A stretch of 64,000 nt of DNA from Anaerolineae bacterium. Lineage in GTDB: Bacteria; Chloroflexota; Anaerolineae; DRVO01. Where the stretch lies: positions 1 to 64,000 of the forward strand of contig JABLXR010000019.1 of the NCBI GenBank assembly GCA_013178015.1. The letters run 5' to 3'. The position numbers and the translations under genes are program-made. The notes below the pieces were generated by a model. The model was not told the origin of the DNA, ran no database searches, and was given only the letters and a program-made list of their open reading frames with translations. Positions 39,291 to 60,156 of the stretch are shown here, piece by piece; within the stretch, counting starts at the first letter, position 1, and each line of letters starts with the position of its first letter.

Positions 39291-39364
39291 CCCCCCGTAG
39301 CTCAGATGGACAGAGCAGCGGTTTCCTAAACCGCGTGCCGCAAGTTCGAGTCTTGCCGGGGGGA
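39291..39364 (+). tRNA. tRNA-Arg (anticodon CCT)
   Basis: The 74-base cloverleaf is complete: acceptor CCCCCCG with CGGGGGG and discriminator A, D stem GCTC/GAGC, anticodon stem GCGGT/ACCGC with loop TTCCTAA (anticodon CCT, reading AGG), and T stem GCAAG/CTTGC around TTCGAGT. CCA is not encoded. No integrase or duplicated tRNA end is next to it, so there is no sign of an integrated element here. Confidence 0.95.
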
Positions 39365-39598
39365 CTACCTGTAGTAGGCGTTCGCCTGCCACGTGCCACT
39401 GGTGGGGACCAGTGGCCAGCGGGCAGCCGCTCCCTGCTTCCCCCGTCCGCGCGCCAGAGCTCGTGCCCCGAATCGGTTCGTCCTCGCGCCTGAGCGCGAT
39501 CCCGGTCTGCCTCCCAAGTAAGCCGCATTGACGGCTGCCAAGCGCTAATCCCCCGCTCCCGCCCCAGGAGCGCGATTCCAGTCGCTCCAGGGAGTCGA

Positions 39599-46362: not shown

Positions 46363-46680
46363 GTGGCCGAGGACAGGACGAGAGCGGTTGAGCGGTTGTG
46401 CAAGGGGCAGGGAGGGGAGCTGGACTTCCTGCGAGAGACGGTGCGCCGGTCTGTGCATTGGCTGATGGAAGAGGAGATGGGGGCCGGTCGGTGGGAGCGC
46501 ACCGAGGAGCGTACCACCTACCGCAACGGGCTGCGCCATGCCCAGCGGAGCACCCTAGTGGCCGCCCTGGACCGGGCCATCCCCAAGCTACGCTCGGGCA
46601 GCTACTTCTTCGGCTGGCTGGAGCCCAGGCGCCGCTCAGAGCAGGCCCTGGTGACGGTGGTGGCGGCCACACTCGTCACC
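46363..46680 (+). pseudogene. IS256-family transposase N-terminal fragment
   Basis: GTG at 46363 opens a frame with WLMEEEMGAGRWERTEERTTYRNGLRHAQ...LDRAIPKLRSGSYFFGWLEPRRRSEQALVTVVAATLVT, the N-terminal third of Mutator/IS256 transposases. Homology ends around 46680 and the frame runs out at 46761 in unrelated sequence. The DDE catalytic domain is absent. The fragment lies 84 bases beyond the end of the convergent brxL gene, so this insertion sequence probably marks the edge of the defence island, and its loss may have involved a rearrangement. Confidence 0.85.
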
Positions 46681-46764
46681 CGCCGCTCTGCCGTTCCACC
46701 CCCCTTCGCTCCGCCGATCGTCATATCATGCCGCCGACCGGTGCGAATCGGATGCGGGTGACCC

Positions 46765-48228
46765 TTAAGCACACTGGATGTCCGGCAGCGCCTCTGTATA
46801 CTCCATGTCCATCAAGCTCAGTTGACGGCGTATGGTTCCCCGCATATCCCTAGCCGGGCCCAGACAGTGCCGCTCGAAGGTATCCGAAGCTATTGCCCCT
46901 GCCATGGGAGCGTGGGGGAACAGAAGCTTCAGCCAGGCAGTCGACATCCGCTTGATGGCTTCCGTATCACGCGTGTCCGCTCCCCTCGGCACATGAAGAC
47001 GCTCATCCACCAGTGCTCTGTAGCGGAGATCACCCCTCAAAGCATGTAGAATCTCCGACAGATACTCCACGTTGAGCCCCCAGCCCGAAGCCTTCATGTC
47101 CTCGCGCATCCTGGGGATGTGCCAGCCGCGAATGAACCCGTGGAAGCGGTCTATGAGGGCCGATTCCTGAAAGGCGTTTGGCAGCGCACTGAGCATGTAG
47201 GCATGATCGTTCATCACTTGGCTGTCAATGTTCCCCAGAAGCACGATCCCAGCCTCACCGAGACCGCGGTAGTCCGCTATCCGGTACTCGCCACTCTCTA
47301 GGTAACCCTTCAGCGCCCCCCGCACCTCGTCTTCGTCGCTGAAGCTGATACTCTGTACCTCGTCCAGAGCCACGTAGTCGCAGCGGCTGACTAGGCCCGG
47401 AATCCGTCTTCGCTTGTCGTAGAACAGGCTCACACGGCCAACGCTCCCGCCACTTACCAGCCATCCGTGTTTGCTAATCTGGGAGAAGACCGTGGATTTC
47501 CCCGTTCCCTTGGGCGCCAGCTCGATGAGGTTGAGCCGTCTCTCTGCGAACGGCAGCAGCCGGCCTAGCAGCGTGAGCTTCTCCCTCAGGTTGAGGAATG
47601 CCAGCGGGTTATAGTCAATTCCCATGAGCAGCACATCGACCCACTCGGTGAGGGTGAACTCCTGCCGAGCCTCTTGGTAGAACTCAACCTCCACCCGGTA
47701 GGGTCGGAAAGGCTTGAAGTCCACCAGGATCACCCGGCCCTCTGCTGGTCTGCCCTGGAGACTGTGAAATCGCCACTCCAACTCCACCACACCCCAAGTC
47801 TCGGCTGCCCCCAGCAGCTCCTCCTGCCGCTCCTTGCTGCTCACCAGCCTGGAATCCACCAGGGCATCGGTACGACGCGACGGGAATCCGAAGTCGGGCA
47901 GGCTGAAGAATGCTTCACCCGTCCTCACGTCCAGCTCAACCCGAAGCTTGGTCAGAAAGCGTACGGGCTGCCCTTCGTTGACCATCCGGCTCTTGAGAAG
48001 CTCCCACTGATCGCGACCAGGCATGTACTGCCGTACGTAAGCCTGGACCTCATCGCTATCCAGTGTCCCGTCTGGATCGGCAAGTCGCATAACCAGCCAG
48101 TCGCGCAGGTACGACGGAACACCGAGGGCAGAGAAGTACTTGTAGCGCCCGGGATCCTTGAATACTACCATGTCGGCGAAAACGTCTCTCACCTTGGCCG
48201 CCAGGCCCTCCGCAGCTGGCTTAGCCAC
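46765..48228 (-). CDS. brxL: BrxL-like AAA+ ATPase of BREX (short form)
   Basis: A 487-residue ATPase. After a ~230-residue N-terminal domain come Walker A APKGTGKST (about 238-246), SKHGWLVSGGSVGRVSLFYD, Walker B DYVALDEVQSI (about 284-294) and LIDRFHGFIRGWHIPRM, all matching the BrxL/TIGR02688 group. E. coli-type BrxL is ~680 residues and has a Lon-like C-terminal domain; this protein stops right after the ATPase. It may be a natural short form or may be cut by the adjoining IS256 remnant. GTG at 48228 overlaps the pglZ end by eight bases. BrxL is needed for BREX phage restriction, probably by acting on DNA. Confidence 0.85.
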   Translation of the reverse strand: MAKPAAEGLAAKVRDVFADMVVFKDPGRYKYFSALGVPSYLRDWLVMRLADPDGTLDSDEVQAYVRQYMPGRDQWELLKSRMVNEGQPVRFLTKLRVELDVRTGEAFFSLPDFGFPSRRTDALVDSRLVSSKERQEELLGAAETWGVVELEWRFHSLQGRPAEGRVILVDFKPFRPYRVEVEFYQEARQEFTLTEWVDVLLMGIDYNPLAFLNLREKLTLLGRLLPFAERRLNLIELAPKGTGKSTVFSQISKHGWLVSGGSVGRVSLFYDKRRRIPGLVSRCDYVALDEVQSISFSDEDEVRGALKGYLESGEYRIADYRGLGEAGIVLLGNIDSQVMNDHAYMLSALPNAFQESALIDRFHGFIRGWHIPRMREDMKASGWGLNVEYLSEILHALRGDLRYRALVDERLHVPRGADTRDTEAIKRMSTAWLKLLFPHAPMAGAIASDTFERHCLGPARDMRGTIRRQLSLMDMEYTEALPDIQCA

Positions 48229-50506
48229 TCCACACCCCCTGCAGCCCCATGTCGTCCTCTGCTATGCCGCGGCGTACCTCGAACTCCACCTGGCCTGGGC
48301 TCTGGCCAGGTGATTCCAGCCTTCCCTTGTAGTGACCTGCCCTTAATCTCGACACATCGAAAGCCCAGCGGTCTCTGCCCGTGCGGCTGCCCTTCAGCCA
48401 GTGCCCAGCAACCACGAGCCGCAACTCCTCCAGGGGCAAGCTAGTGACGGTCTCAAGGTGCCCTTCTCCGCGAGCACTGACTCGCACCGTCGGGGATAGC
48501 ACCTTGAACGTGACCGGCAGGCGGACGAGCTCTGGCCCAGCGCGCTGGACGAGAATGACGGGCACGAGGCACTCTTCATACGTTGCGCCACCGTGCACCT
48601 CTCCTCGGTTACTGCCACCGCCACTGAAGCGACCGTGAACCGCCAGGTGCGCCCATCCATCGTAGAAGAGGCAGCAATCCGTCAGTGCCCTCCGGTGACA
48701 CTCACCACCTGCGATGTCGGCATACCGACCCCAGTGGTGCACGCGCCATTCCCTCGGTGCCGCCACTGGCTGCCCGTCTGCGCCAAACCTGGTGAGGCCA
48801 TGGTCTGCAGTCAGCAGCGCAGTCTCCCCGGGGTCCAAGGTGGACGCGAGCTCGTGGCACACCGAGCTGATGAACTCCAGCTGCCGTACCAGGGAGTCGG
48901 GATATCGGTAGTCGTAGGAGTGCGCTTCTTTGTCCATGTCTCGTGGTGGCCGCTCCTCTTCACCCCACTCCCTGTTGTGCTCGGTCGTTGACGGCAGATT
49001 GGCTCGGGCGACGTGGACACGCACCTGATGCCCTCTACGCACCAGCAGTTCGCTCATCAGTCCCGCCCACTCGAGACCCACGGCGTCTAGCCACACAATC
49101 TTGGCACCGCCTGGACACGCAGCCTTGATCGTCTCTGCGCGAGTGGGAAACTCCCACAGAGCCTTCCGCTCGGCGGCTGCTGTGGCCATCGCCACCAGCC
49201 CTGGGAGAAGACGGTCACACACTCGGGACCGAGCGTACAAGCGGAAGTATTTCATCACCTCAGGGTGATCAGGATACGGATAGGCAGTAAGGTAGATCGC
49301 CAGCTCTGGGTAACAGACTTCGAGCACCGGAAGCCAGACGTCTTCGCTCACCTCTGTCTCCAGCAGCTCCGCTGTAGCCAGCACTGCCTCCCGTTTCTCT
49401 CGCTCGGAGAGGCCTGACAGCGCGCGCAATCGCTTCAGGGGTGTCTGCAGCGTTCGGAACCCCTGCCAGAAAGACGATGGTGGCTGGTCAACCCCCAGGT
49501 GCTCCAGTAGCTGCCGCCGCTCGCGAAGGTGCCCGAAGCTGAGGTTCCGGCCCAATGCCGCTGTAGCCGCTACCTGTGGAAGCGCCTCAGCACTCTGGCT
49601 CTCCTCGAGCACCAGCCCGTAGTACGAATCGCGCGGAGCCTCAAGCTTGCTCCACACCCAGAGCAGCCAACGCGCTTCGGGCTCCAGGTCAAGCCACTGC
49701 CCAAGCAGACGGTCGGGATCGTACTTCACCACATTCAGCTGACGGGCGGCGAGGGTAGAAACGCTGTCGTGCTGGTGGGCCTGTTCCACCAGCCAGCGCC
49801 ACTGGTCTTCCGTACCCCAGTCACTCGCGGCTGAGTCCAGTCCGGCGATCTCCTGACACGCCTGGGCAAAGGCGCTTGTGTACACCGTGATCGCAACTCG
49901 ACCTGCCCTACCTGATAGCACCTGCGGTCGGCTCGTCACTAGGCATCCGTCTGCCATCTCCCCACGTTCCCACCTTCGGAAGTACTCCCGCAACCCGGGG
50001 ATAGAATGAGGTCGGCGCCATTGCGGCACGCTGGCAGACACGCTGATGCTGATCTCGCCGGTGCCAACCAAGCGCCATCCCGGGTGTAGGGCCCCGGCCA
50101 GGTACCGATCCATCCTGGCCACTGTCTCCCCAAAGAGGTCCTCTACCTCCAACAGCGGCACGTAGATCCTCTGATGCCCGGGCTTCTCTAGTTGGGCCAA
50201 CTGGCTGAGCAGAGAGGAGCTGGCAGGATGGAGACGGAGCGCTTCTGCCACAGGCAGAACCACAGCGCGAGGTACCTCTTGGCTCCTGGCCAACGCCAGG
50301 ACCTTGGGCAGATACGGCAGCACATCCTCTGACTCGCAGAGCGACGACAAGTCTATGCAGGCATCCATCTGGGCTCGCAGAGCCGGGATCAGCTCACGCC
50401 AGGCATTGACACCCGTCACCAGGATGAACCGGACTGGGAACCGGGTGTAGCTCACAGCCTCATAAGACACCTCTGTGAGCAGCGTCTCCACGTCGTGGAC
50501 AGTCAT
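48221..50506 (-). CDS. pglZ: BREX phosphatase-like protein PglZ
   Basis: A 761-residue protein of the PglZ family, the one component found in nearly all BREX types. The alkaline-phosphatase-like core is in the C-terminal half: KIVWLDAVGLEWAGL with Asp474 and LLTADHGLTRFG with Asp568-His569 as probable metal ligands, then RHxHWGRYAD and HGGATYEECLVPV. The N-terminal half is helical and variable. ATG at 50506 overlaps the brxC stop as ATGA, so the two are translationally coupled; an upstream in-frame start would lie deep in brxC. PglZ from other systems binds zinc and has nuclease or phosphodiesterase activity. Confidence 0.9.
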   Translation of the reverse strand: MTVHDVETLLTEVSYEAVSYTRFPVRFILVTGVNAWRELIPALRAQMDACIDLSSLCESEDVLPYLPKVLALARSQEVPRAVVLPVAEALRLHPASSSLLSQLAQLEKPGHQRIYVPLLEVEDLFGETVARMDRYLAGALHPGWRLVGTGEISISVSASVPQWRRPHSIPGLREYFRRWERGEMADGCLVTSRPQVLSGRAGRVAITVYTSAFAQACQEIAGLDSAASDWGTEDQWRWLVEQAHQHDSVSTLAARQLNVVKYDPDRLLGQWLDLEPEARWLLWVWSKLEAPRDSYYGLVLEESQSAEALPQVAATAALGRNLSFGHLRERRQLLEHLGVDQPPSSFWQGFRTLQTPLKRLRALSGLSEREKREAVLATAELLETEVSEDVWLPVLEVCYPELAIYLTAYPYPDHPEVMKYFRLYARSRVCDRLLPGLVAMATAAAERKALWEFPTRAETIKAACPGGAKIVWLDAVGLEWAGLMSELLVRRGHQVRVHVARANLPSTTEHNREWGEEERPPRDMDKEAHSYDYRYPDSLVRQLEFISSVCHELASTLDPGETALLTADHGLTRFGADGQPVAAPREWRVHHWGRYADIAGGECHRRALTDCCLFYDGWAHLAVHGRFSGGGSNRGEVHGGATYEECLVPVILVQRAGPELVRLPVTFKVLSPTVRVSARGEGHLETVTSLPLEELRLVVAGHWLKGSRTGRDRWAFDVSRLRAGHYKGRLESPGQSPGQVEFEVRRGIAEDDMGLQGVWSG

Positions 50507-53500
50507 GGATGCGGCTCCGTGCCTGCCAGTAACCTCAGCCCTACCGACGGATCCTCGGCCAGGACCTGGAGCTGTCGCCGGGCGTCTGTCTCCGACATGC
50601 TGCTGATGTAGTCCAGCACTCTCTGGTACAATCGCTCCCTGTAGGAGGCAGCCACCCATTCCTTCGCCACGGACCGGGCCCTATCCCGCGTCCAGCGCCC
50701 CACATCGCGCCCCAGCCGCATCCGGATATGGTCGTGCATTTTGGCTACGTCCGACTCAGTTAGCACTCCATCGTACTCAGGGACTAGCGCCAAGAGCGCG
50801 TCAGTCACGGGGGTACCACTGCCCAAAGCCTGTAGCGCCCCACCCTGAGCATCCAGATAAGCCAACAGATCTCCGAGGCTGGATTCGCTCTGACCACTCG
50901 GGTCGTTCAACCGTCCCAGCATCTCGAGAGCCGCAGGAGAGTCGAGCAGCCACTGGATCGGCAGCCCGCGAGCCTCACTCCAGGCCCGCGGGGATGCGCT
51001 GCCTGTCAGACGCTGCCAAGTTGCCACTGCTTCCGCTGCCAGACGGTTGCGGTGGAGTTCGCCTGCCTGACGCAGCACCTCCTGGCGCAGGTCGGCCGGC
51101 GGGCGGTCGCTCATGTCGGGCAGTCTCTGCCACACATCGTAGCCATCGGAATCACTGAGGGTGATCTCGGCAATGCGATCAGCCCACCGGACCAGCGCTG
51201 CCTGCGGCCCATCGAGCGCACGCCTGACTGACTCGCGCCTGGCGTTCAGCTCCTCTGCCAGCGTGCCCAGCCCTCCTGCTGCCTCTTTCGGATCCAGGAT
51301 CGTCGCCAGTTTCTGCAGCACTCTGGCTGTGCTGTCATCGGAACCAGCCGCCAACACGGCAAGTGGCAGCTTACTCCCCCTGACTCTGCCACGAAGTCGG
51401 TCCAGAGCGGTGACCAAGTTCCTGTCGTGGACGCCCAACAGGTCGTTGAGGGCTTTCAGCAGCTTCAGGCGCCCGGCCGCTTCCGGGAGCCGCTCACGGA
51501 TCTGCTCCTCTCGCCAGAGCCACACTTCCTCATGCATCACCGCCTTGAGCTGGGCCACGACCTCATCGAGTTCCAGTCCGAGGGCCTTCGCTTCTTCCAG
51601 CACCCCAGGCTCCGCCTCCTCAAGGAACCGCAGCATGTTGGTACTGAGATGCGAGGAGGACAGACCTGCCTGGATGGCCTCGGCGTGAGGGGTAACCGCT
51701 TCCACAAATCGGCGCAGAACCTCGCCCTCTAGGGCCTGAGCAGACTCGTTCGTGTCTCGGAGAAGCTCTTCCAGGGCGACAACTGCCTGGCGCAGCGGTG
51801 GACCGTCGTCCAGTCTGAGCAGCCAAATCGGATATCCGATCCTCTTGAGCGCCTCCCGCGCTGCGCGCCGGGCAGTGTCGGGATAGTCAGCCTCTCCCGC
51901 CGGCAAGGAGAATAGGGTAGATACCAGCTGGCAGAAGTCCTGGGCTTCGCGCGTCATGGCGCAAACTGTGGCGTTGCTCTTGCCCTTCATGACGCCGTCA
52001 ATCAACTCAGCCAACTTGCTGGGGTTTAGAGGGAATGTGCTGATGCCGTCTGCCCAGAAGTGACCGTCACAGTAGTCTCGAAGCAACAACCCCATGAGGA
52101 CGATGCCCATAGGCGAGGGCATGAGGCCAATCGGTTCGTCTTGAAGTCTGCCCCACAACTGGCGAAGGCTGACGCCGTTGCTCTGAGCGAAGGCTGCGTC
52201 CACGACTTGCTGCATCTTGCTGAGGGGATGCTCGGGTTGGCGCTGAATGCTAGCCCGGTAGGTCGAGGGATCCCAGAGCCCAAGCCGCTGCAGGTCGTTC
52301 ACGAAATCCCGGTATGGGTTGTTCTTGGGGCGCTCGGCCCCCAGGCTGATGCTTGCACCCTTTCGCCCAAACGTATCCCTGTGCAGTGTGCTTACCGGAG
52401 AGATGAGCTCGGGCCGGTACCGATAGACCGAAGCGATGACCCGACGGAGGAAGGCCCCGTACCCACTGGCACCGCTCGCAATCTCTTCCATCTCGCGGAA
52501 GAAGACACGCAAGCTCTGCTTCGCTAGCTCCTGCCCCCAGCCTTCTAGCAGCCGCTTAGCCCTATCGGCGTGAACGGTGGCGTTAGCGGTGTCGCGGATC
52601 TCCTGGTAGTAGAGCTCGTGAGCGCGCTGCTCGCGCCAGTCCTCCCAGCGTTGCCGACCAAATGGTACTTGGCTGACGGCGATTAGGCCGCGGGGCAAGT
52701 CCCTGGCCAAGCTTCTTGACAACTGCTCCGCGCTGCGCACTTCCTCGTCGTCCTGGCTCACGATGAGCACAGCGGCTATCTGGTAGGGCTCCACTCTCGG
52801 CGAAAACACCCTCTCTCGCCGTTTCAGGAACTCAGCGGCTGAGGCAACGGTCAGCGCCTGCCGCCTTGCAGCCACATCGTCGGAGACACTGAACCACCTC
52901 AGTGCCTCATCGGCGATGAGGGCCTCGCCCCTGGCGTGCTGTTGCACCAACTGCTCGAACCGAGGCAGGCCTTCCTTTAGCCCCCGGACTCGGACATGGT
53001 CCACGCTGCTGGCAGCAATGGTGTATTCCTTCTCCGGGCCAGGGAGCTGCCGCACGACATCCTGATGCACCAGGGACTCGATCGTGGCCATGGCCTCAGC
53101 TTCTTTCCGGGTGCCCACCAGCATCAGCAGTACGTTCTTCTGTCTAGGTAACAGCCGAGGGTCCACCTGCCCCATTTGTCGCTCCAGGGCGATCAAAAGG
53201 AGGACAGCCCGCAGGGCCTGCCGTTCCCGGTCACCCAGGTTGGCAGAGCGAGAACGGTAATAGGAGACAATGTCTCGTACCTTGTCCGCCAGCTCTAGGT
53301 TCTCGTCCAGGAAGAAGTAGTCCCAGAGTGCGTCTGCCGTCAGCCAGGCCGGCTCCGTGTCCACATCCTGGCGCAGGAAGCGGGGGAATGATCCCAGTGG
53401 ATCCTCCTGTCCCTTCTCTCCCCTCAGCCAGCGGAACAGGGTGCGCTCACTCGAGCTGAACTCCCGCGAGATCGTTGACAGCAGGAACGCCGCATAGGGA

Positions 53501-54639
53501 TGGATGGGCACGAGTGCCTTGAAGTCCTCTCGTCGCTCCCCTTCCCGCGCCGCAGTCACCAACATCTTCGCGGCTGCGGCCACCCAGCCCCACATGGCTT
53601 CCCGTCTGCTTTCCCATTCCTCCTGGCGCTGGGGGTTGACGTTGATTGCCCCTGCCATGAGGTGGTACGCGGTCACCGTAGCCATCTGATAGGGGATCAC
53701 GGTGAACCGGTCGAGCAGACGTCTCCAATCCGCCTGATCTCCGTACTGGCGGGCCACTTCCGGGGCCTTGTGAGTGATCAGGAACAGATAGAACGGTTCG
53801 CTGGCGGACAGATGGGCCAGCTCCTGGAGGGTGGTGGTAGACGGATTCTGACGGAAGTACTCGGTGAACTCATCCCAGATGAAGAGGATGGACTTCAGCT
53901 GGGCAGCCTCGATCACTTCGCCTAGCCAAGCCTTCACCGCCTCGGGATCGCCCAGGACCATGTAACCTTCCTCAGACATGACCTGGTGCACCCGCGCCAG
54001 CAACTCGGCGTTCTCCTCATTGTCTACCCCGGTTCGTAGCCGGCGTATCACCCCGTCCGCGTCGGAGAAGTCAGGGAAGGTTGACTCATGGCGACGAAAA
54101 GCGGCCTGCCAGTTGAAGGAACTGTCAGGTCCATCCAGCTTTTCCAGCACCGCCTGGTACAACGTAGGGGTCATGGGGAGCTCGTATCCCCGCGCCAGCA
54201 GCGCCTGCCGCACACCCTCCTGGACCTGCCCCAAAAGGGTGAAGCTGTTTGTCACATGGGCGGACCCGGAGCGGTATGCCACGAGGTGATCGCCCTGCTC
54301 TCGGGCTGCCAAGAGCCGCCGCTCGAGATCGCCCTGCTCCCGAAAGGCTCTCTGGGTCGCCAGGTAGGATCTGACCTCGTCCAGGTCATCCTCCAGCAGG
54401 TGCTTGAGCACGAAGGCGGCGAAGGTCTTGCCGGTCCCGTAGGCACCGTGGAGCAGCAGCGGACGCCGGTCGCTGGCTGTACCGCGCTCCAGGGCCCTCA
54501 GCAGGTGGTCAAGGGTTTTGAGCCAGTCGGCGTGCGGTATGAAGGACCTCCAGGCGTTGGTATCGCGACGATCCACTTCCTGGCTGAAGATGGGCTCGAA
54601 GTCCTGGTTGACCGAGATGTAGTCAGCATAGATCGGCAT
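50503..54639 (-). CDS. brxC: BREX large ATPase BrxC
   Basis: A 1378-residue protein, the size expected for BrxC/PglY. It begins MPIYADYISVNQDFEPIFSQEVD and has Walker A LLLHGAYGTGKTF (about 61-73) and Walker B SILFIWDEFTEYF (about 250-262), followed by LFLITHKAPEV. The long C-terminal region is helical with several Leu/Glu/Arg stretches and no other recognisable enzyme motif. BrxC is essential for BREX DNA modification and phage exclusion and probably forms a large complex with the other subunits. It overlaps pglZ by four bases and lies 30 bases after the DUF4007 gene. Confidence 0.93.
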   Translation of the reverse strand: MPIYADYISVNQDFEPIFSQEVDRRDTNAWRSFIPHADWLKTLDHLLRALERGTASDRRPLLLHGAYGTGKTFAAFVLKHLLEDDLDEVRSYLATQRAFREQGDLERRLLAAREQGDHLVAYRSGSAHVTNSFTLLGQVQEGVRQALLARGYELPMTPTLYQAVLEKLDGPDSSFNWQAAFRRHESTFPDFSDADGVIRRLRTGVDNEENAELLARVHQVMSEEGYMVLGDPEAVKAWLGEVIEAAQLKSILFIWDEFTEYFRQNPSTTTLQELAHLSASEPFYLFLITHKAPEVARQYGDQADWRRLLDRFTVIPYQMATVTAYHLMAGAINVNPQRQEEWESRREAMWGWVAAAAKMLVTAAREGERREDFKALVPIHPYAAFLLSTISREFSSSERTLFRWLRGEKGQEDPLGSFPRFLRQDVDTEPAWLTADALWDYFFLDENLELADKVRDIVSYYRSRSANLGDRERQALRAVLLLIALERQMGQVDPRLLPRQKNVLLMLVGTRKEAEAMATIESLVHQDVVRQLPGPEKEYTIAASSVDHVRVRGLKEGLPRFEQLVQQHARGEALIADEALRWFSVSDDVAARRQALTVASAAEFLKRRERVFSPRVEPYQIAAVLIVSQDDEEVRSAEQLSRSLARDLPRGLIAVSQVPFGRQRWEDWREQRAHELYYQEIRDTANATVHADRAKRLLEGWGQELAKQSLRVFFREMEEIASGASGYGAFLRRVIASVYRYRPELISPVSTLHRDTFGRKGASISLGAERPKNNPYRDFVNDLQRLGLWDPSTYRASIQRQPEHPLSKMQQVVDAAFAQSNGVSLRQLWGRLQDEPIGLMPSPMGIVLMGLLLRDYCDGHFWADGISTFPLNPSKLAELIDGVMKGKSNATVCAMTREAQDFCQLVSTLFSLPAGEADYPDTARRAAREALKRIGYPIWLLRLDDGPPLRQAVVALEELLRDTNESAQALEGEVLRRFVEAVTPHAEAIQAGLSSSHLSTNMLRFLEEAEPGVLEEAKALGLELDEVVAQLKAVMHEEVWLWREEQIRERLPEAAGRLKLLKALNDLLGVHDRNLVTALDRLRGRVRGSKLPLAVLAAGSDDSTARVLQKLATILDPKEAAGGLGTLAEELNARRESVRRALDGPQAALVRWADRIAEITLSDSDGYDVWQRLPDMSDRPPADLRQEVLRQAGELHRNRLAAEAVATWQRLTGSASPRAWSEARGLPIQWLLDSPAALEMLGRLNDPSGQSESSLGDLLAYLDAQGGALQALGSGTPVTDALLALVPEYDGVLTESDVAKMHDHIRMRLGRDVGRWTRDRARSVAKEWVAASYRERLYQRVLDYISSMSETDARRQLQVLAEDPSVGLRLLAGTEPHP

Positions 54640-54669
54640 AGATGCGTTCCTCCGTCGGCGGTCGCAGCC

Positions 54670-55353
54670 TCAGTTCGCCATCTCGTATCGTCCCCATGGT
54701 TGACACAGCGTGGCGAGCGTAATCAGTGCATCGTCTCGATCACATCCAAAGATGATCCAGGGCCAGGTAAGGTCCTCGTCCAGCCCTAGTGTCATCCTGC
54801 CCTGGCCTTGGCCCAGTCTGACGCTGGCGTACAGAAGCGCACCGGGGGAGGGATTTGAAAGGCCCCAGCGCTTGACCAAGCGTGGGCTTCCGGGGAACAC
54901 CTCGCCCTGACCCAACTCCCGGCCGATAGGTGTTCGCTCCAGAAGACCGACCAGCTCAAGGATGGCGTCATAACAAGTCCTGTAGGAAAGCGCAGGATGG
55001 AACCCTTGCAGTGCCTTAGCCAGTTCTATGGTCGTCTGCTGGGTGCTTGGGGAACACTGACGCACATACCAGTGGGCTGTGGCAAACCCCAGGGCGCAGT
55101 GTGCCCAGAGCAGCTGCCAGACTAGGCTATCGTCTGGCCCAGCAGCTCGAGCATGGGCGCAGAGGAAAGTCTCGCGTCCGTTCGAATCCAGAAGGCCAGT
55201 TGTCCGTAACCACCTGGCTAGCGCATCCACCTGCTTGTTGCCGAGGTGTCCTTGGTCCATCCAATCATCCGGACGTTCCAGATAGAGCTGCACCCACTCC
55301 CGCCTCAAGCCGAACGTCCGATGCACTGACCATCCCTTGTCGTAGACGGTCAT
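54670..55353 (-). CDS. DUF4007-family protein
   Basis: A 227-residue protein beginning MTVYDKGWSVHRTFGLRREWVQLYL and GHLGNKQVDALARWLRTTGLL, which matches the DUF4007 domain (FxLRxGWLxK..., LGVGxxMVxAIRxWL pattern). DUF4007 proteins are encoded beside PAPS-reductase-like genes in phosphorothioation (Dnd/Ssp) and BREX type 4 loci; their activity is not established. The C-terminal half of the upstream BrxP-like protein carries a second copy of the same kind of domain (IGRISTYQTFGMRLSWLKEFME, GNRQIEAMRAWLREAELI). It overlaps that gene's stop by four bases, so the two are coupled. Confidence 0.82.
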   Translation of the reverse strand: MTVYDKGWSVHRTFGLRREWVQLYLERPDDWMDQGHLGNKQVDALARWLRTTGLLDSNGRETFLCAHARAAGPDDSLVWQLLWAHCALGFATAHWYVRQCSPSTQQTTIELAKALQGFHPALSYRTCYDAILELVGLLERTPIGRELGQGEVFPGSPRLVKRWGLSNPSPGALLYASVRLGQGQGRMTLGLDEDLTWPWIIFGCDRDDALITLATLCQPWGRYEMAN

Positions 55354-57650
55354 TGAGGCAGATCCAGCACATCGCTAGACGTTTTTCCGCTGTCCATATG
55401 GATGTTATCTAAGTCCCTCGTGAGTTCGACGGATATCCAGTCCGGCCACAATGATGACATGCCCCGCAGAAGTCTGCTTAGCAGGTCCACATCTAACCCG
55501 AAGACTGCATGGGGGCCCTCTACCGCTCCGTCTAGGAGTTCCGATAAGGTGATCCTGTGTCTACCCATACGTTCAGCATATCGGTACAGCGAGTAGAGGA
55601 CCGCATGCCCGCTTGGTGACCGCCATCCCAGCTTGTGCACTCTGGGACCTCTTTCTTTGTCTGAGAGCACTTCGCCAGCCCCGATGCTCCCCAGAGGGGT
55701 GGCGCGTAGCGTTCCGAGGAGAGCCGTTGCCGCATTCTCGCGAGTCCGCTCACTTGCGCCTGCGGGCATATGCTCGATGAGCTCTCGCCTGGACCAGTTG
55801 CCTCCCCAGGGCACGTCCGTCGTGTACCATGCTATAAGTGAGGAGTTTCTTACCAGATTGCACCAGATCACGCTCCATGTAATGGGAGACTCCGGACCGA
55901 ACCGGCTCAGCTTACCGACAAGCTCTGTGATGTGAAGGGCACTGCCCCTAATGAGTTCCGCTTCCCGTAGCCAGGCCCTCATCGCTTCGATCTGTCGATT
56001 GCCCAGATCACTGCTGCCCCACCATGACTCTCGCTTCTCCATGAACTCCTTTAGCCAGGACAGCCTCATTCCGAAGGTCTGGTAGGTACTGATTCGTCCC
56101 ATCCTCCCGCCCCCATTAGTGGTGCCGAGTGACTTAGCTGCCCAGCAGCCCTTCTCTGTGAGCTTCAGACATTGGTAGCAGTGACAACATAGCGCCTCAT
56201 TGACATGGACTCTATCTCCCATCGAGAGGGCCCCTGTAGGGCATTCCACCGCGCACCCACGGCAGTGAGTGCAGTATGCTGTCTTGTAGACGGTGGCGCG
56301 AATGTAGCTCTTGAGGACGCGGTAGTCCGCCTCGATGCCGCTCAATTGCACGGTCAGGCTGTCACTGCTGCGATGAATCTGATAACGGCAGTGCTTGTCT
56401 TCCATTCTGATCACGCCCTGAGCCCTGTCCTCGAGGCTGATGCTGCCCAACACCTTAGCCCACTCAAGCCAGTTCTCAGATGGATGCCGAAGGACGAATG
56501 TCAAGGTGCCATCTTGCTCGTGTTCCGCGACTCGAAGACCCCCTGCCTCAATGTCTCGCCCGCCTGATCTGACCTTCCATTGGCCTTGATTCACGTACTC
56601 CTCAGCTCTTTCGGGTGCTAGTCCTGAACTCGCCGCGCAGTCGTACAAGATAGCTGTCAGGGCACTAACATCGTCAGGACAGGCCATGCTGAGAACCGCT
56701 TCGCTCCAGCTTGAGCCGAAGGGGCACACACTGCAGCCTACACGGCCCAGCCCGTACCGGTATCCAGTATTCAGAGGCAGGTCACGTTGCAGAATGTATA
56801 GGAGCGTTTGCAGGGGGCCCCACTGCAGGATGGGACTCACATTCACCTGCGTGGCGTGCTTGCCGCCTACCGATATCTCTCCGTACTGTGAGCGCCTCTG
56901 GCTCTCAGCGGCTCTCACTCCGTCGAATACCAGCGCAGATACCGTCGGTTTGCCCACCAGCTCTCGCAGTAGCAGGAGGTTCGGAGCAGTCTTGTGTACC
57001 GTACAGCACCATCGCATGATCCGGCTCGGCGGCCCCAGCTCCCGCCAGGTCTGAGTGGCCGGCTTGTGCGACCGAGCGGTCAGGAACGTCAGCTCAGGAA
57101 ACCGTGCCTTCGCCCGCTCCACCGCTTCGTAAGTAGCACTGATTTCCATTGTGGTGTCGCTAAAGACGACCACGAACTGGTCCGGCGGCAGAGTCCGCTG
57201 CACCAGGTCCAGCACCACCAGAGAGTCCTTGCCGCCGCTGAAGGCCACGGTGGCAATATCCACTTTGTCGCGGTACTGATTGTAGGTACGGTCAATGAAC
57301 TCGATCGCCCGGTGGACCAGTCCGCTCATTATGTAAGCGTTCTTTCTCAACATCACCGGCACATCTGCCGGCTCCAACTGCAGGCCTTTCTCTTGAAACT
57401 CGATCTTCGGCTTCTCGAAGAAGCCTCCGCCCTTGGCTTCTGCCACCTGGCGGCCTCGGTAGTAGTAGCGCCGATCCACCGCCCAGAGCAGTGGCTCTTG
57501 TATTCGGTCGTACTGCCACTCGGTGTCGAACCCGAAAAGATCCAGTTCCTCGAAGAAGACAGGGCGCACCTCACCCTGGATGGCGCCGTCGTCCCCATCG
57601 GTGAGAAGGACACCTCCCGTCTCTTCGTCCCAGATGGTGCGGTAGCTCAC
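55350..57650 (-). CDS. brxP: BrxP-like PAPS-reductase/ferredoxin/DUF4007 fusion
   Basis: A 766-residue protein with four parts: an N-terminal ~120-residue domain; a PAPS-reductase-type PP-loop ATPase with SGGKDS at 138-143 (TVAFSGGKDSLVVLDL); cysteines at WCCTVHK (214-216) and GCSVCPFGSSW (306-309) that could bind Fe-S; a ferredoxin-like segment with CTHCRGCAVECPTGAL (460-470) and CCHCYQC; and a C-terminal DUF4007 domain from about 520. DndC/SspD-type relatives insert sulfur into DNA. BrxP takes the place of the methyltransferase in type 4 BREX, so sulfur-based DNA marking is an attractive inference. GTG at 57650 has GGGGGAG upstream; an earlier start at 57707 is possible. Confidence 0.87.
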   Translation of the reverse strand: MSYRTIWDEETGGVLLTDGDDGAIQGEVRPVFFEELDLFGFDTEWQYDRIQEPLLWAVDRRYYYRGRQVAEAKGGGFFEKPKIEFQEKGLQLEPADVPVMLRKNAYIMSGLVHRAIEFIDRTYNQYRDKVDIATVAFSGGKDSLVVLDLVQRTLPPDQFVVVFSDTTMEISATYEAVERAKARFPELTFLTARSHKPATQTWRELGPPSRIMRWCCTVHKTAPNLLLLRELVGKPTVSALVFDGVRAAESQRRSQYGEISVGGKHATQVNVSPILQWGPLQTLLYILQRDLPLNTGYRYGLGRVGCSVCPFGSSWSEAVLSMACPDDVSALTAILYDCAASSGLAPERAEEYVNQGQWKVRSGGRDIEAGGLRVAEHEQDGTLTFVLRHPSENWLEWAKVLGSISLEDRAQGVIRMEDKHCRYQIHRSSDSLTVQLSGIEADYRVLKSYIRATVYKTAYCTHCRGCAVECPTGALSMGDRVHVNEALCCHCYQCLKLTEKGCWAAKSLGTTNGGGRMGRISTYQTFGMRLSWLKEFMEKRESWWGSSDLGNRQIEAMRAWLREAELIRGSALHITELVGKLSRFGPESPITWSVIWCNLVRNSSLIAWYTTDVPWGGNWSRRELIEHMPAGASERTRENAATALLGTLRATPLGSIGAGEVLSDKERGPRVHKLGWRSPSGHAVLYSLYRYAERMGRHRITLSELLDGAVEGPHAVFGLDVDLLSRLLRGMSSLWPDWISVELTRDLDNIHMDSGKTSSDVLDLPQ

Positions 57651-57732
57651 CGCCACTCCCCCGTATCCGCTCGGATTTGCTCGCGCGGGCCTGTGGACGC
57701 GCGACACCCCATTAGGTGCCTTGTTCGTCCCG

Positions 57733-60156
57733 TCAACCTAGAGACGGTCTGGCGATTCCGATCTCGTGCTCTAGTAGGTACCTACCATCACCGAGAGCAC
57801 GAAACTCCTGCCGTCCCAGGGCGACCATCACTTCCTCATAGCCTGGAGACAACCCCAGCAGAGGCAACTGCGCCGCTATCTGCTCTGAGGTGAGGGCGCA
57901 GCCAGCCATCTCTAGGATCTGGCCGATGGCTTGGGCCAGCTCCTGGTGTGCATCCGCCCCTGGGGTGGGCGAGGTGCCTAAGTCCCGACCCTCTTTGGCC
58001 CACTCGCTCAGGGCATACATATCACCCAGAGCCGTGAACCTGGCCGTCTCAGACTCCAGAATGGCCCGTGCTGTCTCCGGAGTCAGGTGCTGGTCTGAAG
58101 GAAGCCTCCCATTTGCCTGGACCGTCAGCTCCTCCAAGCTCATCGGCCGGCAGTACGAACGCAGGGTAGCCAGGATGGCCCTGGACTGAGCTCCGACTAC
58201 CGCACGGCCACGTCTGGGCAGATCCATGAGCCCCCACTCAGTCAGGCCATAGGTACCTCGCTTGCCCACCCACGCGAAGTAGGACGGCTCGCTGCTGAGA
58301 CGAGCATGTACGCTCCTCGAGGCCATGGCCTGGTCTGGACCCAGATAGGCATTGACCTCGGCGGCAATCTCGCTGTAATGGGCTGGCTCGCCAATACGGC
58401 GCAGCGCCAGCGCTATCTGACGCGTGCGAGAGCGCACTCTCCCCTTCAGGTACCAGTCGCCCGTTCGAGGATCATGGCGTAAGCCCGGACAGGTGCGCAG
58501 ACACGCGGAGATGAAAGCGCCGTCCAAGTCAGTGCCCTGTTCGCCAGGCGCCTGGCATTCCCAGAGTCGCGTGATCAACTCGGTCCTGGACAGGCCAAGA
58601 GGGTGTTCCCAGAGCAGGTCCCGCAGCGCCTGCCACATCTGGCGCACCTGTGCCGGATCCCGCTCTCGGTGCACCCAGACTCCAAGCTTGCCATGCCAAC
58701 CCGGGAGGATGTCGGCCTCCGTAATCAGCCGTACTACTCCCGCTGGATCAATCGCACCTGGCCGCACTACCCGAGCTAGTGCTCTCGCCAGTCGCTGCGG
58801 GGTCATGACCCCTCCCGCCTCAGCTAGAACCTCCTGCAGGAGCAGGAGGAGCGGATCTCCGGCCTGCAAGTACACATGGTACCGTAGAACGCGGAGTGAC
58901 TTCGCCTGCAGTTGTCTGATCCGCTCTCGTGTAAGGCCCAGCTGGCGACCGATCTCCTCCAGAGTCTGTGACTCGCCTTGTAGACCCAGCCTAAGCCTGA
59001 GTATCCGAGTGTTGCGTTCACCCACAAAGCTCAGCCAAGCACCAACAATCTCTTCCAGTGTCTGTCGGCGCAGTGCCTCCCGCTGGAACGGGTTCAACTC
59101 TAGCCCGAGCGCCTCTCGCTCGAGAGCACCTTCATCCTGCGCCAAGAGCCATTCCGTGTAGAGCCGCAGCTGCTCATGGGCCTCCGGCTTGGAGTGGGGG
59201 TCTCCTACGGCACCATCCGCGAGCCGCTGTACTGTATGAATGCCTGAGGCGACCAGGCGGGCTGTCTCTTGAGCGTCTAGTCCGAGGCGTGATATGCCGA
59301 TCGCCAGCCCTGTGTGGACGGCTCTATACGCAGGCAGCGAGAGTGCTGAAGGCTCCCTAGGTTCATCCTGGCGCAGGTCGGGAGCGGGATCGCGGTCTCG
59401 ACCGAGCTGAAGGTACTCTGCCTGTTTCTGACGCACTTCCGCCAGAGACTTCCGGCCGAGGTTGCGGATGGACAGCAACTCGTCGTCACTCAGGACCTCA
59501 AGCTGCTCCACCGTCATCACCCGGGCTCTCATCAGGGCGTTCAGCGGCCGAGGCGACAGGTCCAGGCGATCTATGGGAGTGCCTGGCTCCTGCCCGGTGG
59601 GCTCGCCCGGTACGTTTGGGCTGCTGTCCTCTCCTAGGAGCGCCGCCAGCCTACCCAGTGCCTCCCTGGCCGAAAACACATCCAGGTAGCCGGTGTCGGT
59701 CAGGGCTTCCGCGGTCAGGCCCCTGAAGTGCCCGACCTGCGTGAGCCCCAGGCGAAGCAGCGCGAACTGGGTACCATCTGCCAGCCCCATCGCGTCAACG
59801 GGGGTATCGGCGATCTTGGCCCATGCCCCCTGGCCGGATTCGCACTCCCAACTGCTTGCGAACTGGCGTAGTCTGTCCCGCAGCTCTGAGAGGGACTTGG
59901 TCCCGAAGTTCCTGAGCTCAAGCAGCTCAGCGCAGGTTGCACTAGCCAGCTGGCCTACCGTCACCAGGTTGGCCCGTTCCAGGCAGTTCCGGGCACGGCG
60001 TGAGAGGCCCAGACACAAGACTGGCGCCGTGAGAGCCACGTCCGGCAAGCAGATCTGCAGCTCTTCAAGCAGAGTGGGCCAGGTGGTCGGCTCCTGCCAG
60101 TGTCGCTCCGTCTCCATACTTGCTTCCGTCTTCTTGAGGTCACCCAGGCACGTCAC
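57733..60156 (-). CDS. Composite transcription-machinery-like protein: alpha-CTD repeats, sigma region 4, HARE-type winged helices
   Basis: An 807-residue protein (GTG at 60156; ATG at 60117 also possible). Helix-hairpin-helix modules like the RNA polymerase alpha C-terminal domain lie at ~46-100 (ANLVTVGQL, LLELRNFGTKSLSELRDRL) and ~196-250 (LLSIRNLGRKSLAEVRQK), with degenerate copies near 125-175 and 283-315. Residues ~365-428 form a sigma-70 region 4 (RILRLRLGLQGESQTLEEI then LTRERIRQLQAKSLRVLR). Residues ~435-800 hold about five winged-helix units of HARE/RpoE-delta type, e.g. RRIGEPAHYSEIAAEVNAYL and RGTYGLTEWG. It has no catalytic motif. As first gene of the BREX operon, it may regulate transcription or recognise modified DNA. 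Confidence 0.78.
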   Translation of the reverse strand: MTCLGDLKKTEASMETERHWQEPTTWPTLLEELQICLPDVALTAPVLCLGLSRRARNCLERANLVTVGQLASATCAELLELRNFGTKSLSELRDRLRQFASSWECESGQGAWAKIADTPVDAMGLADGTQFALLRLGLTQVGHFRGLTAEALTDTGYLDVFSAREALGRLAALLGEDSSPNVPGEPTGQEPGTPIDRLDLSPRPLNALMRARVMTVEQLEVLSDDELLSIRNLGRKSLAEVRQKQAEYLQLGRDRDPAPDLRQDEPREPSALSLPAYRAVHTGLAIGISRLGLDAQETARLVASGIHTVQRLADGAVGDPHSKPEAHEQLRLYTEWLLAQDEGALEREALGLELNPFQREALRRQTLEEIVGAWLSFVGERNTRILRLRLGLQGESQTLEEIGRQLGLTRERIRQLQAKSLRVLRYHVYLQAGDPLLLLLQEVLAEAGGVMTPQRLARALARVVRPGAIDPAGVVRLITEADILPGWHGKLGVWVHRERDPAQVRQMWQALRDLLWEHPLGLSRTELITRLWECQAPGEQGTDLDGAFISACLRTCPGLRHDPRTGDWYLKGRVRSRTRQIALALRRIGEPAHYSEIAAEVNAYLGPDQAMASRSVHARLSSEPSYFAWVGKRGTYGLTEWGLMDLPRRGRAVVGAQSRAILATLRSYCRPMSLEELTVQANGRLPSDQHLTPETARAILESETARFTALGDMYALSEWAKEGRDLGTSPTPGADAHQELAQAIGQILEMAGCALTSEQIAAQLPLLGLSPGYEEVMVALGRQEFRALGDGRYLLEHEIGIARPSLG

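What the first reader, a model, noticed from the sequence alone, without database searches (positions are those of the whole stretch)
46765..60156. Type 4 BREX island without a methyltransferase
The gene order brxP-like (PAPS reductase), brxC, pglZ, brxL matches the type 4 BREX architecture, in which BrxP replaces the PglX methyltransferase. Overlapping starts and stops (ATGA at brxC/pglZ, eight-base overlap pglZ/brxL, four-base overlap brxP/DUF4007) show a coupled operon. Type 4 is among the least studied BREX types, and how self-DNA is marked is unclear.
Basis: partly seen in the sequence, partly recalled or inferred. Interest (0 to 1): 0.7.

Follow-up and report, generated by a model that had tools for sequence, protein, structure and literature searches.

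The report
Type 4 BREX with sigma-like head gene
This is a genuine type 4 BREX anti-phage operon, of the kind reported to mark DNA with sulfur instead of methyl groups, and it belongs to a lineage that carries two extras I found no description of: a second DNA-binding DUF4007 gene and, usually, a first gene built from pieces of the transcription machinery.

Summary
On the minus strand, 57707-46765 encodes BrxP, a stand-alone DUF4007-like protein, BrxC, PglZ (type-4 model) and BrxL, with the three overlaps as described. No amino-methyltransferase motif occurs in any window ORF of at least 100 aa, and the contig is only 64,396 bases. It is type 4 BREX. The claim that self-marking is unclear is out of date: papers citing Yuan et al. 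2024 state that brxPCZL makes phosphorothioates.

Two features appear undescribed. (1) BrxP already ends in a fused DUF4007 domain, yet a second DUF4007 gene follows. It is found only in one BrxP clade (11 rows, support 96/96) plus Thermodesulfatator. (2) The first gene (60156-57733, 807 aa) has two RNA-polymerase alpha-CTDs, sigma region 4 and HARE-like winged helices, but no sigma region 2 or 3. In 8 of 12 loci of this clade the gene just upstream of brxP carries sigma-family sequence; two of these are complete sigma-70 factors.

Best reading: a phosphorothioate BREX whose expression, or infection sensing, is controlled by an RNA-polymerase-derived head protein. The core is known; the regulatory layer is inferred.

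The parts
57733..60156 (-). Head gene, 807 aa: RNAP alpha-CTD (res. 44-97), second alpha-CTD (190-248), sigma-70 region 4 (380-425), then winged-helix/HARE-HTH-like C-terminal half; no sigma region 2/3, no kinase
   Evidence: PF03118 114 bits in 2 stretches; PF04545 41 bits; PF05066 HARE-HTH 21.8 bits, below cut-off 25.9, but 27.0 in homologue L039
60194..60229 (.). 11-nt inverted repeat (14-nt loop) 38-73 bp upstream of the head gene's GTG; candidate operator, unproven
55350..57707 (-). brxP: PP-loop (SGGKDS) PAPS-reductase-type domain, ferredoxin-like Cys cluster, fused C-terminal DUF4007-type domain; likely true start GTG near 57650 (homologues begin at residue 20-22)
54670..55353 (-). DUF4007b: stand-alone second copy of the BrxP C-terminal domain (30% identical to it), 227 aa
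50503..54639 (-). brxC (1378 aa AAA+ ATPase, related to SspC)
48221..50506 (-). pglZ, type-4 subfamily; DAV/TADHG metal-site-type motifs; start in ATGA overlap with brxC
46765..48228 (-). brxL, short form (487 aa; aligns to PDB 8emc residues 14-458, lacks the C-terminal Lon-like part)
46363..46761 (+). Mutator-family transposase remnant abutting the 3' end of brxL

Best explanation
A type 4 BREX operon of a distinct lineage. BrxP (PP-loop ATP pyrophosphatase with a ferredoxin-like cluster) with BrxC and DUF4007 would install phosphorothioate marks on self-DNA, with sulfur from housekeeping cysteine desulfurases encoded elsewhere in the genome; PglZ and BrxL would then block unmarked phage DNA. 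The two DUF4007 copies, one fused to BrxP and one free, probably split DNA scanning or nicking between the modification and the restriction complexes. The head protein (alpha-CTD, alpha-CTD, sigma-R4, HARE) most likely binds the operon promoter and/or RNA polymerase and controls BREX expression, as the sigma-type head genes of relatives probably do. Shown here: gene identities, clade, head-gene domains, recurrence of sigma-domain head genes. Inferred from literature: phosphorothioation. Inferred by me: regulation and the division of DUF4007 roles.
For: Core HMM hits and motifs. No methyltransferase motif in the window. Five Aminotran_5 (class V) proteins elsewhere in the genome, two scoring near 280 bits, fit the statement that housekeeping desulfurases can substitute (PMC12839542). 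BrxP tree: window in an 11-row clade, 96/96. Second DUF4007 in every clade-A locus whose brxP-brxC interval is intact, plus L026; 2 changes on the tree. Sigma-domain head gene directly upstream of brxP in 8 of 12 clade-A loci: window; L085 (sigma-R4); L090 and L119 (L090 has regions 1.1, 1.2, 2, 3 and 4; L119 is 75% identical along its length); L014, L096, L117, L118 (region-1.1-like). Background: 23 above-cut-off sigma-R4 genes in the whole 4.57-Mb genome. A relative of the head protein also heads a methyltransferase-DUF4007-AAA-SspC/BrxC-PglZ-BrxL operon on plasmid pIAD-21, and another is fused to a phosphorothioate-DNA-binding-type domain (L040).
Against: No other type 4 locus found here has this exact head protein; its nearest chromosomal homologues (L039, L042) sit among housekeeping genes, so its link to BREX in this genome rests on strand and a gap of 25-82 bp. 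The sigma-head proteins of relatives are mostly not homologous to it beyond sigma-R4. Three of 12 clade-A loci have no sigma head (L080, L093, L116) and L084 has it downstream of brxL. No structure prediction was possible. Phosphorothioates were not measured in this organism. Promoter scan at chance level.
Confidence: 0.72

Rival explanations
1. The head protein is a working part of the BREX complex rather than a transcription regulator: a DNA-scanning/scaffold subunit equivalent to the C-terminal half of PglW of type 2 BREX (alpha-CTD followed by winged helices).
For: P0001 residues 190-461 match PglW model positions 795-983 and homologue L039 matches 797-982; PMC12839542 describes alpha-CTD plus three wHTH modules in PglW as a BrxA-like unit; related proteins occur in a methyltransferase-based BREX-like operon and fused to a phosphorothioate-DNA-binding-type domain.
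Against: This clade already has two DUF4007 (BrxA-like) domains; relatives carry true sigma factors or isolated sigma-1.1 domains in the same position, which fits transcription better; homologues exist outside defence loci.
Confidence: 0.25
2. The head gene is an unrelated neighbour, a chromosomal alpha-CTD/sigma-R4/HARE regulator of this phylum that happens to lie upstream.
For: Homologues in 4 of 400 genomes of the phylum; the stretches read around three of them (L039, L042, L041) show no BREX gene.
Against: Same strand, 25-82 bp gap; lies inside the lower-GC stretch with the brx genes; sigma-domain genes recur in the same slot in 7 clade relatives, against about 0.5% of genes as background (23 in the genome; gene count estimated).
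Confidence: 0.2
3. The stand-alone DUF4007 is a redundant duplicate of the BrxP C-terminal domain with no separate role.
For: Recognisable paralogue, 30% identical.
Against: Orthologues stay 40-43% identical to the window's copy, more than the fused copy is, with many invariant residues, and are kept across the clade and in Thermodesulfatator, so it is selected for.
Confidence: 0.1

Closest known systems
Type 4 BREX (brxPCZL), phosphorothioate-based
   Same: All four core genes, order P-C-Z-L, DUF4007 fused to BrxP, ferredoxin-like cluster, no methyltransferase
   Different: Additional stand-alone DUF4007; alpha-CTD/sigma-R4/HARE head gene; no linked cysteine desulfurase (reported in 56% of taxa in PMC12839542)
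Ssp phosphorothioate systems (SspBCD)
   Same: BrxC related to SspC, BrxP to SspD, DUF4007 to SspB
   Different: PglZ and BrxL present; no SspE/SspFGH gene found in the locus
PglW of type 2 BREX
   Same: alpha-CTD followed by sigma-R4-like/winged helices (model 795-986)
   Different: No NERD nuclease, no kinase, no C-terminal iSTAND found; 807 aa against about 1400
MzaA (sigma-70 family protein of the MZA defence system)
   Same: Sigma region 4 in a defence operon
   Different: P0001 lacks sigma regions 2/3 and is far below the MzaA cut-off (57.6 of 800 bits)

Membership tests
Type 4 BREX | BrxP: PAPS-reductase/PP-loop protein in place of PglX | tested here: met
   PDLC02510 880 bits, PF01507 88.5 bits, SGGKDS
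Type 4 BREX | BrxC, type-4 PglZ, BrxL in order P-C-Z-L on one strand | tested here: met
Type 4 BREX | No PglX-type methyltransferase in the locus | tested here: met
   no [DNS]PP[YFW] motif in window ORFs of 100 aa or more; no methyltransferase hit in the genes scanned
Type 4 BREX | Phosphorothioate DNA modification | not testable with these tools
   needs mass spectrometry; reported for other members
Type 4 BREX | Protection against phage | not testable with these tools
   needs plaque assays
Sigma-70 factor (for the head protein) | Regions 2 and 4 | tested here: not met
   only region 4 found; relatives in L090 and L119 are sigma-70 factors
PglW | NERD nuclease and Ser/Thr kinase plus C-terminal half | tested here: not met
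   64 bits against a cut-off of 990; only model 795-983 matched
HARE-HTH (head protein C-terminal half) | PF05066 domain above the curated cut-off | tested here: inconclusive
   21.8 bits against 25.9 in P0001, 27.0 in homologue L039
DUF4007 / SspB (for 54670-55353) | Homology to the DUF4007 domain | tested here: inconclusive
   matches the C-terminal domain of the BrxP model and P0002 540-741, but PF13182 itself is not reached

The most novel reading that the evidence does not exclude
A lineage of type 4 BREX has recruited RNA-polymerase-derived proteins (complete sigma-70 factors, isolated sigma-1.1 or sigma-R4 domains, or alpha-CTD/sigma-R4/HARE fusions) several times into the slot before brxP. 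They would form an undescribed control or sensing layer that couples phosphorothioate BREX to the state of host RNA polymerase during phage infection, together with a second, free DUF4007 subunit.
Probability: 0.45. Interest if true: 0.65.

Novelty: new variant of a known kind. Interest (0 to 1): 0.48.

Why it matters
Type 4 is among the less studied BREX types, and how its expression is held safe is not described in the papers read here. A recurrent sigma-type head gene gives a concrete, testable regulator. If it senses or bypasses phage takeover of RNA polymerase, it would link a DNA-modification defence to transcription. The second DUF4007 separates two roles that the fused BrxP hides.

Tried and rejected
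Viral contigs: no relative of the head protein. Phage and plasmid records: mostly sigma-R4 alone. Idea that the clade-B head family (UPG) and P0001 share a conserved C-terminal half: profile comparison 2% probability, rejected, although two clade-B members do carry sigma-R4. Direct homology of the L014 region-1.1 protein to P0001: rejected. Island boundaries by tRNA repeat: no attL/attR-like repeat of the tRNA-Arg end. Promoter and terminator scans at chance. PDB profile search for the stand-alone DUF4007: no hit. The paper describing phosphorothioation by type 4 BREX (Yuan et al.) and the HARE-HTH paper are not held; statements about phosphorothioation rest on papers that cite the former.

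Full report
WHAT IS THERE. On the minus strand the order is head gene (60156-57733), brxP (57707 or, more likely, about 57650, to 55350), a 227-aa protein (55353-54670), brxC (54639-50503), pglZ (start 50506 in an ATGA overlap, to 48221) and brxL (48228-46765). Family models name each core gene: BrxP 880 bits over nearly the whole model, BrxC 574, PglZ by the type-4-specific NCBIfam model (355 against a cut-off of 140), BrxL 653. Motifs expected of working enzymes are present: SGGKDS in BrxP and a Cys-rich ferredoxin-like stretch, Walker A and B in BrxC, DAV and TADHG in PglZ. BrxL aligns to the solved BrxL (8emc) over residues 14-473 and ends before the Lon-like part.

NO METHYLTRANSFERASE. 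The flanks are a Mutator transposase remnant, DsrK-like and DsrE-like genes and a rhamnosidase. A search of the whole genome with the BrxP model found only this locus plus a short ferredoxin-like piece elsewhere.

SELF-MARKING. The open question as stated has moved on. PMC11931770 lists brxPCZL (BREX type 4) among three gene families that make phosphorothioates, and PMC12839542 has a section on type 4 as a phosphorothioation-based BREX; both cite Yuan et al. 2024, which is not held. Cysteine desulfurase is linked in 56% of taxa there and is said to be replaceable by housekeeping homologues; here none is linked, but the genome has five class-V aminotransferase-family proteins, two scoring near 280 bits.

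SECOND DUF4007. BrxP already contains the DUF4007-type domain at its C-terminus. The 227-aa protein is a second copy (30% identity to BrxP 540-741). Orthologues lie between brxP and brxC in L014 (Fermentithermobacillus), L026 (Thermodesulfatator), L080, L084, L085, L090 (interrupted by stops), L116-L119; the three aligned with it (L014, L026, L080) are 40-43% identical to the window's copy. They were not found in the gut Bacillota, Bacteroidota and methanogen type 4 loci, where tblastn hits only the fused copy. On the BrxP tree the trait changes twice; the window sits in an 11-row clade with support 96/96. DUF4007 corresponds to SspB (PMC12839542), whose nicking activity is reported as essential for Ssp modification (PMC8092258), and has a BrxA-like three-HTH architecture by modelling (PMC12839542). 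A split of scanning or nicking between the two copies is my inference.

HEAD GENE. The 807-aa protein has two alpha-CTDs, sigma-70 region 4 and a C-terminal half with a HARE-HTH-like domain; no sigma region 2 or 3 was found, so it is unlikely to be an ordinary sigma factor. It resembles PglW only in the alpha-CTD/sigma-R4 part. Relatives occur in 4 of 400 genomes of the phylum: two in matching housekeeping neighbourhoods (L039, L042), and one (L040, 1612 aa) whose N-terminus matches the phosphorothioated-DNA-binding restriction endonuclease model. Another heads an operon of Eco57I-type methyltransferase, DUF4007, small AAA, SspC/BrxC, PglZ and BrxL on an Abditibacteriota plasmid.

RECURRENCE. 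In 12 loci of this BrxP clade (11 on the tree, plus L119, whose brxP is broken) the gene immediately upstream of brxP carries sigma-family sequence in 8: window; L085 (sigma-R4, 120 aa); L090 (sigma-70 with regions 1.1, 1.2, 2, 3 and 4, 29 bp from brxP); L119 (75% identical to L090's along its length, 28 bp from brxP); L014 and L096 (region 1.1 by Pfam); L117 and L118 (matched to L090 residues 25-205 and 20-194 by BLAST). L084 has one after brxL; L080, L093 and L116 have none. Sigma-R4 genes above cut-off number 23 in the window's genome, roughly 0.5% of genes if there are about 4,500, so this is far beyond chance even allowing for shared descent; the tree needs 4 changes, counting also two sister-clade loci (L086, L087) whose head genes contain sigma-R4. 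The clade of gut-type loci instead has a head gene with a conserved C-terminal block of about 450 aa and variable N-termini, with no family found for the conserved block.

MECHANISM. Most likely: phosphorothioate marking by BrxP/BrxC/DUF4007, restriction by PglZ/BrxL, and control by the head protein acting on promoter or polymerase; an inverted repeat 38-73 bp upstream of the head gene is a candidate operator. The marking step is taken from the literature, the control step is inference. The rival that the head protein is a PglW-like complex subunit is live; that it is an unrelated neighbour is less likely but not excluded.

LIMITS. Whether supplementary tables of PMC12839542 list these head genes could not be checked; its type 4 section does not mention them.

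Noticed in passing
L012:13956-16442, L018:2219-5005, L027:6052-7788 and 12 others (alignment A3): Type 4 BREX loci of gut Bacillota and relatives carry, directly upstream of brxP, a gene with a conserved ~450-aa C-terminal block and variable N-termini (EH-signature in L012, sigma-R4 in L086/L087); no Pfam, NCBIfam, PADLOC or PDB family for the conserved block. Possibly an undescribed component.
   Followed up: partly
L038:10509-24866 (plasmid pIAD-21, Abditibacteriota): Composite BREX-like operon: sigma-R4/HARE protein, Eco57I-type methyltransferase, DUF4007, small AAA, SspC/BrxC-like ATPase, PglZ-like, BrxL.
   Followed up: partly
L040:7919-12757: 1612-aa protein joining a phosphorothioated-DNA-binding endonuclease-like N-terminus to alpha-CTD and sigma-R4, in a stretch with a 1391-aa gene weakly like an nSTAND NTPase.
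   Followed up: no
L011:9830-17243: Treponema saccharophilum plasmid: PAPS-reductase, DUF4007, BrxC/SspC-like ATPase and class-V aminotransferase, followed by helicase and phospholipase D genes; a phosphorothioate-type system with other effectors.
   Followed up: no
window 39291-39365 and 39000-60500: tRNA-Arg (CCT) at the start of a lower-GC stretch (about 58-65% against 65-68% in the preceding 10 kb and above 67% beyond 61 kb), with a Mutator transposase remnant at 46363-46761; island-like, but no flanking tRNA repeat found.
   Followed up: partly
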